64,000 nucleotides of DNA from Fibrobacter sp. UWB11 (lineage in GTDB: Bacteria > Fibrobacterota > Fibrobacteria > Fibrobacterales > Fibrobacteraceae). The notes under the pieces were generated by a model. The model was not told the origin of the DNA. It saw only the letters and a program-made list of their open reading frames with translations, and made no database searches. Numbering within the stretch: the stretch's first letter is position 1; every line of letters begins with the position of its first letter. Of this stretch, positions 12,179 through 15,382 are shown one piece after another. Where the stretch lies: the NCBI RefSeq assembly GCF_900143015.1, contig NZ_FSRT01000002.1, forward strand, positions 558,001 to 622,000, written 5' to 3'. The translations under genes were made by a program, and so were the position numbers.

Positions 12179-15100
12179 ATGAATTCCAAAATTCTGCTCA
12201 TATCATCAACATTCTGCTTGGCTATGCTGAGCGGCTGTTTTGAAGAAGCCACCGAGGCAGCAGCAAACGAGATTCAGGAAAACCTGACCTCGGCTGTAGC
12301 CTGCACCACAGAACCGCTCAAGGACAATAGCGGTGTCAAGATCATCTGCGGAGGCGATTCCGTAGGCGTCGTATTGAACGGTAAAGACGGAAAAGACGGC
12401 AAGGATGGCGAAAACGGAAAGGATGGTCTTTCTGGCAAGGATGGCGAATCCTGCTACGTGACCAAGAATACCGAAAAGAACGGTTACGACGTTTTCTGCG
12501 GTGAAGAAAAGCTCGGCTTCCTTGCAAACGGCAAGGACGGTGTAAATGGTAAAGACGGCGAAGATGGCGCTCAAGGTGAAAAGGGCGACAAGGGTGATAA
12601 AGGCGATAAAGGAAACAAAGGCGACAAGGGAGACAAAGGAGATAAAGGCGACCAAGGCGATAAGGGTGACAAGGGTGATAAGGGAGACACCGGCGATAAA
12701 GGTGACAAAGGTGACTCCGGCAAACAAGGTGAAAAGGGCGATACCGGCGCTCAAGGCGAGAAAGGCGACAAGGGTGCCGATGGCGAATCTTGCACTGTTG
12801 TAGAAAACACTGAAATTGATGGTTACGATGTTATGTGCGGCAACAAGAAGGTCGGCGTGCTCCGTAACGGTAAAGATGGTAAAGACGGCGAAAAGGGTGA
12901 CAAGGGCGATAAGGGTGATACCGGCGCTCAAGGCGAAAAAGGCGACAAGGGTGACAAGGGTGACTTCTGCTCCGTGAAGGTCAACGCTGAAATCAATGGT
13001 TTTGACGTTGTGTGCGGCGACGAAAAAGTCGGCGAACTCCATAACGGTTTGGACGGTGAAAAGGGCGAAAAAGGTGACAAGGGTGACAAGGGCGATACCG
13101 GTGCTCAAGGCGAAAAAGGCGACAAGGGCGATAAGGGTGACGCTGGCGAATCCTGCACCTTAGTGATTAACAAGGATATCAATGGTTATGACGTTATCTG
13201 CGGCGATAAGAAGGTCGGCGAACTTCATAACGGTCTGGATGGAGAAAAGGGCGAAAAAGGTGACAAGGGTGACACCGGCGATAAGGGTGATACCGGTGAT
13301 AAAGGTGAAAAGGGTGATAAAGGCGACAAGGGAGACAACGGTGAAAACGGTCTCGATGGAGCTTCTTGCACAATTTCGCTGAACGAAGAAATCAATGGTT
13401 ACGATGTTATCTGCAACGACAAGAAGGTTGGTGAACTCCGTAACGGTAAAGATGGCGAAAAAGGTGAAAAAGGTGACAAGGGTGATAAAGGCGATACCGG
13501 AGCTCAAGGCGAAAAAGGCGACAAGGGCGATAAGGGTGATAAGGGTGATGCTGGCGAATCCTGCACCATCACAGTAAATAATGAAATCAATGGTTATGAT
13601 ATTATGTGCGGCGACAAGAAGGTCGGCGAACTCCATAACGGTTTGAATGGTGAAAAGGGTGAAAAAGGCGATAAGGGTGACAAGGGTGATACCGGCGCCC
13701 AAGGCGAAAAGGGCGACAAGGGTGATACTGGCGAAGCTGGTAAGAACGGTACCGATGGCGAGTCCTGCACAATCGCTGCTAATAAGGAAATCAACGGTTA
13801 CGACATCCTCTGCGGTGGCGTAAAGGTTGGCGAGCTCCTCAATGGTAAAGACGGCAAAGACGGTGCTAACGGCGAAAAGGGTGAAAAGGGCGATAATGGC
13901 GAAGATGGCGCTAAAGGCGAAAAAGGTGACGCTGGTGCCGATGGCCAGTCCTGCACTGTTGTTGAAAACGCTGAAATCAATGGTTACGACATTCTCTGCG
14001 GCGGCGTAAAGACCGGCGAACTCCGTAACGGTAATGACGGTAAGGACGGCGAAAAGGGTGAAAAAGGTGATCAAGGTGAAAAGGGCGATAAAGGCGACAA
14101 GGGTGACACCGGCGATAAAGGTGAAAAGGGTGATCAAGGCGAAAAAGGAGATAAAGGCGACAAGGGTGATAAAGGTGAACAAGGCTATATGGGTGAAAAG
14201 GGCGAACAGGGCTTGCCGGGCGAATCCTGCACTGTCATTGAAAACCTTGAAATCAACGGTTACGATATCCTCTGCGGCGGCGTAAAGGTTGGTGAACTCC
14301 GCAATGGTAGTGATGGCCACGATGGCGACAATGGTGTTAAAGGCGAAAAGGGTGATCCGGGCGAATCCTGCACCGTAGTCGAAAACCTTGAAATCAACGG
14401 CTACGACGTTTACTGCGGCGATACAAAGGTCGGTGAACTCCGCAACGGCAAGGACGCCATCCTTCCTTCATCCAGCAGCATCGCTTCTTCTAGCAGCGAA
14501 ATCGCATCTAGCTCCAGCAGCGAACCGATTCCTTCTAGCTCAAGCGTTGAACAACTCAGCGAAGCATGCACAGCACTCCGCGCTAAAACAGACGTGTTCA
14601 ATTCCCTGTACGATGTGCTCGGTTGCACCCTCTCTAACGAAAAGGTCGCTATCGTTCTCCGCCACGCCCAGCGTGACATCAATAAATACGGTGACGAGGA
14701 CGGACTCATCGAAGTGGGCAGACAGCAGGCAAAGCAAGTCGGCGAAAAGCTGAAAAAACTTAACCTCGGTGACTTCTATTACATGTACACGAACGTCAAG
14801 CGCACTGCTGAAACCGCTCAAATCATCGCAGTGAATAAAGGCCAAAACGTTTCTACAAACTTGAACGACTGGCACAAACACAGCATTGACGGCCTTAGCG
14901 AAATCAACTTGAACTTGAAGGAATCCTGGTACATCAGACCCAACGGAAATGCCGGCAACTGCAAAGGCAGCGCAAGCTGGGGCTGGAGCTCTTACTCAAG
15001 AATTGCATATCAAGAATACGATAACAACAGCAACCGTCAGAACTGCGAAAATGCATTCTACCCCATCGCTGACAGAGTTAACGATTTCATCAACACCTAC

Positions 15101-15382
15101 TTCACCTACGACCAAATGCACAAGTACACCTTGGCCATTTCACATGACCAATACACGGTCCCGTTTGTCATTACCATCAGTAACAAGCAAATCCACGATG
15201 ACGTAGTAAACTCGAAGTATGACCTCCGCTTCCACAAGCACGACAACTGGCCACCTGACTTCAACTATTGGATTAACTACCTTGCAGGTTTCGTACTTAT
15301 CGTGAACGAAAACAACAATGTTGTTAAGATCCCGGTCAAGGCTCTCGACGACGGGTTCTTGCGTAAATACGAAAATCCGTAA
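12179..15382 (+). CDS. Collagen-like lipoprotein with two-Cys modules and C-terminal histidine phosphatase domain
   Basis: The 1067-residue protein starts with a lipoprotein signal (LSGC, Cys20), so it should be anchored in the outer membrane. Residues from about 60 to 760 alternate Gly-X-Y collagen-like stretches ([11 protein letters not shown] types) with eleven copies of a module of about 28 residues. Each module reads ESCTV...EINGYDVxCG..KVGELxNG and has two cysteines. A Ser-rich linker (about 762-790) leads to a histidine-phosphatase-like domain: [11 protein letters not shown] near residue 825, [13 protein letters not shown] near 878 and a second His in [10 protein letters not shown] near 985. 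Both catalytic histidines are seen. The likely picture is a triple-helical surface stalk presenting a phosphatase; partner and substrate are unknown. The Shine-Dalgarno AGGGAG precedes the ATG. Confidence 0.88.
12360..14460 (+). repeat. In-gene collagen-like DNA repeats
   Basis: Degenerate 9-bp units (GGYGAYAAR-like, Gly-Asp-Lys) and larger modules of 150-230 bp recur. The tract could vary in copy number by recombination. Confidence 0.85.

What the first reader, a model, noticed from the sequence alone, without database searches (positions are those of the whole stretch)
12179..15382. Collagen-like stalk with eleven two-Cys modules ending in a histidine phosphatase domain
Seen: a lipidated protein alternating Gly-X-Y tracts and eleven modules ESC..NGYDVxCG..KVGELxNG, then a Ser linker and a domain with RHAQR and a second catalytic-type His. 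Known: bacterial collagen-like proteins form surface stalks; histidine phosphatases include phytases and phosphomutase-like enzymes. Inference: a surface filament presenting a phosphatase, perhaps for phytate or phosphorylated cell-wall material in the rumen. I know of no described protein with this order.
Basis: partly seen in the sequence, partly recalled or inferred. Interest (0 to 1): 0.74.

Follow-up and report, generated by a model that had tools for sequence, protein, structure and literature searches.

The report
Collagen-stalked surface phosphatase of Fibrobacter
A Fibrobacter bacterium (the genus best known from the rumen) carries a lipid-anchored protein that looks like an enzyme of the histidine-phosphatase family held out on a long collagen-like stalk studded with small paired-cysteine beads; the same layout recurs in many Fibrobacter genomes, and I found no published description of it.

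Summary
Observation confirmed. ORF 12179-15382 (+), 1067 aa, has a lipobox, eleven 33-aa two-Cys modules, 143 Gly-X-Y triplets, a Ser linker and a C-terminal His_Phos_1 domain. The genome is a Fibrobacter. The architecture recurs: at least 24 genomes of the Fibrobacteraceae have modules and head in one ORF. Orthologues at the same locus (pgi - GGDEF/EAL - stalk gene) have 4 to 11 modules, while complete heads stay 81-84% identical. The modules match no Pfam or NCBIfam family, occur only in one order of the phylum, and are predicted as a three-stranded beta meander. The same stalk carries FISUMP heads in sister proteins. R828, H829, R832, R875, H989 and D990 are invariant in 40 homologues. The HD dyad is like that of branch-2 phytases, yet the domain matches branch 1 and lacks RHGxRxP; named relatives include Ais/PmrG, an LPS core phosphatase. 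Best reading: an Lcl-like outer-membrane 'lollipop' displaying active phosphatase heads, substrate unknown; phytate is possible but not specially supported. New variant of the bacterial collagen-like protein, with an undescribed module. Trimer, surface exposure and activity are inferred, not shown.

The parts
12168..12172 (+). ribosome-binding-site-like GGGAG, 6 bases before the ATG
   Evidence: sequence read directly
12179..15382 (+). whole gene, 1067 aa lipoprotein: stalk plus histidine-phosphatase head
12179..12238 (+). signal peptide with lipobox LSGC; Cys20 is the predicted lipidated residue
   Evidence: sequence; no signal-peptide predictor was available
12293..12391 (+). module 1 (first-module type, residues 39-71)
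12380..12451 (+). Gly-X-Y tract 1, 8 triplets
12443..12541 (+). module 2 (Cys92, Cys107)
12530..12790 (+). Gly-X-Y tract 2, 29 triplets
12782..12880 (+). module 3 (Cys205, Cys220); the module folded
12869..12967 (+). Gly-X-Y tract 3, 11 triplets
12959..13057 (+). module 4 (Cys264, Cys279)
13046..13153 (+). Gly-X-Y tract 4, 12 triplets
13145..13243 (+). module 5 (Cys326, Cys341)
13232..13366 (+). Gly-X-Y tract 5, 15 triplets
13358..13456 (+). module 6 (Cys397, Cys412)
13445..13561 (+). Gly-X-Y tract 6, 13 triplets
13553..13651 (+). module 7 (Cys462, Cys477)
13640..13765 (+). Gly-X-Y tract 7, 14 triplets
13757..13855 (+). module 8 (Cys530, Cys545)
13844..13951 (+). Gly-X-Y tract 8, 12 triplets
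13943..14041 (+). module 9 (Cys592, Cys607)
14030..14227 (+). Gly-X-Y tract 9, 22 triplets
14219..14317 (+). module 10 (Cys684, Cys699)
14306..14368 (+). Gly-X-Y tract 10, 7 triplets
14360..14458 (+). module 11 (Cys731, Cys746)
14468..14545 (+). Ser-rich linker, residues 764-789
   Evidence: sequence
14546..15379 (+). histidine-phosphatase head, residues 790-1067: R828 H829 R832, R875, H989 D990; four Cys (797, 816, 928, 956), three invariant and one (928) in 17 of 18 heads of the stalk clade
15403..15423 (+). intrinsic-terminator-like hairpin followed by T run: the gene appears monocistronic
   Evidence: count of such sites in the region not above shuffles
9953..11896 (-). divergently oriented GGDEF/EAL protein, conserved neighbour (pgi - EAL - stalk gene)

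Best explanation
A lipoprotein, probably of the outer membrane, whose three chains wind into a collagen-like triple-helical stalk of about 120 nm or more. The stalk is broken at intervals by small disulfide-closed beta-meander modules, and a flexible Ser linker joins it to a cluster of histidine-phosphatase heads held away from the cell. Each head would use the usual two-step phosphohistidine mechanism: H829 as nucleophile, R828, R832, R875 and H989 binding phosphate, and D990 of an HD dyad as the likely proton donor. It would act on phosphate esters outside the cell. The stalk is a generic carrier: in the same genus it mostly carries FISUMP (Lcl-like) heads, and its length changes by gain and loss of modules while the head stays constant. 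Shown: anatomy, invariance of the active site, conserved architecture and synteny, variable module number, exchangeable heads. Inferred: trimer, surface exposure, disulfides, catalysis. Guessed: substrate (phosphorylated glycans or other organic phosphate).
For: Collagen 1.7e-70, His_Phos_1 above cut-off. R828, H829, R832, R875, H989, D990 invariant in 40/40 homologues down to about 25-30% identity; D990 is the only invariant acid. Model topology fits the fold, and the Foldseek and VIA lists are headed by histidine phosphatases (weak model, pLDDT 57). A profile of 27 heads finds PDB histidine phosphatases at 1.6e-7 and E. coli Ais at hhalign probability 93.8%, E 1.7e-7. Module predicted as three beta strands, pLDDT 85; the Cys lie at the start of strand 1 and the end of strand 2, as a cross-strand disulfide would need. 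Every module keeps both Cys; a DsbA-family protein is encoded. At least 24 genomes have modules and head in one ORF (places and ORF lengths). Synteny with 4-11 modules and heads 81-84% identical. Stalk-borne heads lie in one clade. Nine of ten other sampled stalk proteins end in FISUMP.
Against: No multimer prediction could be run, so the trimer rests on the collagen repeat. The head model is poor (pLDDT 57, best Foldseek E 0.017, Z below 5). Sorting of lipoproteins to the cell surface in Fibrobacter is not known here; the head could sit in the periplasm, though a 120-nm stalk would hardly fit. The Gly-X-Y tracts hold almost no proline (0.7% of X/Y), so stability rests on charge pairs. No expression or activity data were found. 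VKOR is absent and DsbB was not sought, so the route that re-oxidises DsbA is unknown.
Confidence: 0.55

Rival explanations
1. The head is a phytase-like nutrient scavenger: the stalk presents an acid phosphatase that strips phosphate from phytate or other plant organic phosphates.
For: Invariant HD dyad (H989-D990), the proton-donor motif of phytases (PMC3969271). A gut Gram-negative is known to release a histidine-type InsP6 phosphatase, in vesicles (PMC3969271).
Against: No RHGxRxP fingerprint; profile match is to branch 1 and none to branch 2. Eight family members in this genome with different carriers suggest several substrates. No Fibrobacter phytase report surfaced in titles and abstracts.
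Confidence: 0.2
2. The head edits phosphorylated cell-surface glycans, its own LPS or capsule or a neighbour's, as Ais/PmrG dephosphorylates the LPS core.
For: Ais/PmrG models are among the best NCBIfam hits (8.8e-7) and Ais aligns by hhalign, E 1.7e-7, sharing RHAER and the second Arg motif. PmrG dephosphorylates heptose II (PMC8129183).
Against: Other histidine phosphatases score alike; the NCBIfam cut-off for PmrG is far off (29 bits against 170). A long stalk is an odd way to reach one's own LPS. The alignment to Ais covers only the N-terminal half.
Confidence: 0.25
3. The head is mainly an adhesin: like the FISUMP/Lcl heads on sister stalks it binds anionic (phosphorylated or sulphated) glycans, with little turnover.
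For: The same stalk carries FISUMP heads. The Lcl C-terminal domain on a collagen stalk is a trimeric glycosaminoglycan binder (PMC11162425).
Against: All catalytic residues are invariant in 40 homologues, which a pure binding domain would not need.
Confidence: 0.15

Closest known systems
Legionella collagen-like protein Lcl (lollipop: anchor, collagen stalk, C-terminal trimeric head; PMC11162425)
   Same: N-terminal membrane anchor, collagen-like stalk of variable length, C-terminal globular head; sister Fibrobacter stalk proteins carry FISUMP heads, one with a weak Lcl_C match (E 0.095)
   Different: Lipobox instead of an amphipathic helix; two-Cys modules in the stalk; head is a predicted enzyme, not a C-type-lectin-like domain
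Streptococcal Scl1/Scl2 collagen-like adhesins
   Same: charged Gly-X-Y tracts; the stalk scores best against these models
   Different: far below their cut-offs (211 of 400 bits); no LPXTG anchor, no variable N-terminal head, Gram-negative
Ais/PmrG, LPS core heptose(II)-phosphate phosphatase
   Same: RHAER-type nucleophile motif, second Arg motif, exported
   Different: no stalk; THN where the heads have SHD; score far below the family cut-off
FISUMP (Fib_succ_major, TIGR02145) lipoproteins of Fibrobacter
   Same: same kind of first module, two-Cys modules and collagen tracts
   Different: C-terminal head is FISUMP, not phosphatase
BtMinpp, histidine phosphatase exported in vesicles by Bacteroides thetaiotaomicron (PMC3969271)
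   Same: gut Gram-negative, exported histidine phosphatase
   Different: branch 2 with RHGxRxP and HAE, no stalk, inside vesicles

Membership tests
bacterial collagen-like proteins | uninterrupted Gly-X-Y tracts matching PF01391 | tested here: met
   (1.7e-70); 143 triplets in 10 tracts
bacterial collagen-like proteins | triple-helical trimer | not testable with these tools
   no multimer prediction or wet data
histidine phosphatase superfamily | catalytic quartet RH..R, second Arg, second His | tested here: met
   R828 H829 R832, R875, H989 invariant in 40/40; which residue plays each part is taken from motif position
histidine phosphatase superfamily | PF00300 score over cut-off | tested here: met
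   31.8 against 21.7 bits; 25 of 27 relatives match at E <= 0.01
histidine phosphatase superfamily | alpha/beta/alpha fold | tested here: inconclusive
   order of elements fits and the list is headed by this superfamily, but pLDDT 57, E 0.017, Z 4.6
branch 1 (PGM-like) | conserved catalytic Glu between the two halves | tested here: inconclusive
   no conserved Glu column found there and the only invariant acid is D990 in HD, but the alignment of that stretch is gappy
branch 2 / histidine acid phytase | RHGxRxP fingerprint | tested here: not met
   RHAQRDI in the window; no RHGxRxP in the aligned relatives
branch 2 / histidine acid phytase | HD proton-donor motif | tested here: met
   H989-D990 in 40/40; its role as proton donor is inferred
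Ais/PmrG equivalog (NF052369) | score over curated cut-off 170 | tested here: not met
   28.6 bits
Lcl (NF046116) | score over curated cut-off 500 | tested here: not met
   189.4 bits, from the collagen tracts
DUF7151 (PF23657), considered for the modules | profile match | tested here: not met
   only own-genome match is elsewhere, E 0.456; no phylum genome over cut-off

The most novel reading that the evidence does not exclude
Fibrobacter has a genus-wide, plug-in display system: lipid-anchored collagen stalks built from an undescribed disulfide beta-module, whose length is tuned by module gain and loss and whose tips are exchanged between lectin-like FISUMP domains and active phosphatases of an unassigned class (branch-1 signature with a branch-2 HD acid). 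It would be a case of an enzyme displayed at the end of a bacterial collagen stalk.
Probability: 0.4. Interest if true: 0.68.

Novelty: new variant of a known kind. Interest (0 to 1): 0.5.

Why it matters
Fibrobacter degrades cellulose by close contact with fibre, and how its surface is built is still debated. A modular stalk family that is widespread in the genus, with exchangeable heads, would be a new component of that surface and gives testable pieces: a 33-aa disulfide module usable as a building block in engineered collagens, and a phosphatase class with a mixed active-site signature. The four Fibrobacter papers I searched do not mention collagen or phosphatase in their main text.

Tried and rejected
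DUF7151 as a known family for the modules: no match. Modules as Pfam/NCBIfam domains: none, searched singly and within the whole protein (filters may lose short sequences). Phage origin of the modules: no match in phage records. Plasmid-borne relatives of the head: none. Foldseek for the module: only non-significant beta-meander hits such as OspA, E above 1. An artefact of low-complexity translation: rejected, since orthologues at the same locus keep the frame and the head and the Cys pattern is far above shuffles. Absence of a fold family from the VIA list was not used as evidence.

Full report
Observation. The ORF at 12179-15382 (+) encodes 1067 aa: signal with lipobox, eleven 33-aa modules, ten Gly-X-Y tracts (7 to 29 triplets, 143 in all), a Ser linker (764-789) and a C-terminal domain (790-1067). 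Pfam gives Collagen 1.7e-70 and His_Phos_1 above its cut-off. C-x14-C-x9-NG is found eleven times in this frame, never elsewhere in the window; shuffles give at most one. An RBS-like GGGAG precedes the ATG and a terminator-like hairpin follows the stop.

Whose it is. Relatives in named records are all Fibrobacter or Fibrobacteria MAGs, so the window is from a Fibrobacter (inference). Orthologues in L039, L040 and L044 lie in the same order, pgi - GGDEF/EAL (reverse) - stalk gene. The complete heads of L039 and L040 are 84% and 81% identical to this one, while L039, L040 and L044 have 4, 9 and at least 9 modules against 11 here. In L041 and L040 modules are more like their own neighbours (mean best 0.96 and 0.88) than like those of orthologues (at most 0.69 and 0.73), as expected of duplication within the gene; in the window and L044 the reverse holds for each other, so this is not general.

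The module. A profile of 28 modules finds 80 of 151 genomes of the phylum, all in one order (genus, family and order mates), none in other classes. The count per genome reaches 52. No Pfam or NCBIfam model matches it, nor DUF7151. AlphaFold2 on the module alignment gives three strands, 4-9, 14-19, 22-28, mean pLDDT 85.5. The Cys sit at positions 4 and 19, opposite ends of the first hairpin, so an intrachain disulfide is natural (inference). A DsbA-family protein is present, VKOR is not. From Gly to Gly across a module is 29 residues, not a multiple of three, so the modules interrupt the collagen register (inference from sequence).

The head. Forty homologues share R828, H829, R832, R875, H989, D990 and W1031 without exception. 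D990 is the only invariant acid. Branch 1 enzymes use a Glu and branch 2 an Asp (PMC10218301); in phytases that Asp is in an HD motif (PMC3969271). The window's head thus joins a branch-1 profile match to a branch-2-like dyad and lacks RHGxRxP. Mixed signatures are known elsewhere (Sts proteins, a different mixture). The structure model is weak (pLDDT 57, pTM 0.67; six sequences), yet the best Foldseek and VIA matches are histidine phosphatases. The profile of 27 heads reaches PDB histidine phosphatases (1.6e-7) and E. coli Ais (hhalign E 1.7e-7). Four Cys of the head (797, 816, 928, 956) are kept in the stalk clade (928 in 17 of 18).

Family history. The head family occurs in 81 of 151 genomes, only within the family of the window's genome at E 1e-10, with up to 11 copies; the window's genome has eight or nine by two searches. 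In a tree of 38 heads all 14 stalk-borne ones fall in one clade of 18 (100/100); of the other four, one (L012) is cut by a contig end and holds a module, two have Ser linkers and one no linker (sequences). The simplest history is one joining to the stalk with later losses; the root is by midpoint, so this is not proven. Matching places and ORF lengths shows modules and head in one ORF in at least 24 genomes, one of them of another genus of the family (G097). Nine of ten other sampled stalk proteins end in FISUMP. Heads without stalk ride on other carriers, among them an FGE-sulfatase-like domain (L006).

How it works. By analogy with Lcl, seen as trimeric lollipops (PMC11162425), I take it to be a lipid-anchored collagen stalk with phosphatase heads; 143 triplets at 0.286 nm per residue make about 123 nm without the modules. 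Catalysis is inferred from the invariant active site. The substrate is open: glycan phosphates (Ais-like), phytate or other organic phosphates. I give the structural and enzymatic reading 0.55.

Literature. No paper was found with collagen-like and histidine phosphatase together, and four Fibrobacter genome or proteome papers do not mention collagen or phosphatase in the main text; supplements could not be read. Only openly licensed papers were searched.

Noticed in passing
window 9953-11896 (-) and 12179-15382 (+): GGDEF/EAL gene and stalk gene are divergent neighbours in four loci (window, L039, L040, L044); possible co-regulation of c-di-GMP signalling and a surface stalk.
   Followed up: partly
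window 15529-15918 (+) and 19127-19525 (+): Two small ORFs beginning MENFF; both hit the same stretch of L039 (90% and 52% identity), so they look like paralogues. No Pfam match for the first.
   Followed up: partly
window 15928-18807 (-): 959-aa ORF with FGE-sulfatase-like domain; the reading frame starts well before a likely lipoprotein signal, so the true start is probably downstream.
   Followed up: no
G000:C3:350297-353139 (L005, L007): Two histidine-phosphatase-headed proteins of about 700 aa lie in tandem; similar tandem sets of two to four occur in other Fibrobacter genomes.
   Followed up: no
L057 (G000:C5:99000-107000) and L058: Two neighbouring lipoproteins with one module, a collagen tract and then repeats like NLSSASAKNQKDVDDAL, possibly a trimeric coiled coil; the rest of the 1347-aa one matches nothing in NCBIfam.
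   Followed up: no
L076, L059, L012: Some stalks hold a spacer like GKSAYEIAVxNGFxGTEEEWLASLKG between collagen tracts.
   Followed up: no
L066 (G006:C129:5000-20000): A tandem array of at least four stalk proteins of about 1000-1130 aa with collagen tracts, an unnamed middle domain and C-terminal FISUMP-like sequence.
   Followed up: no
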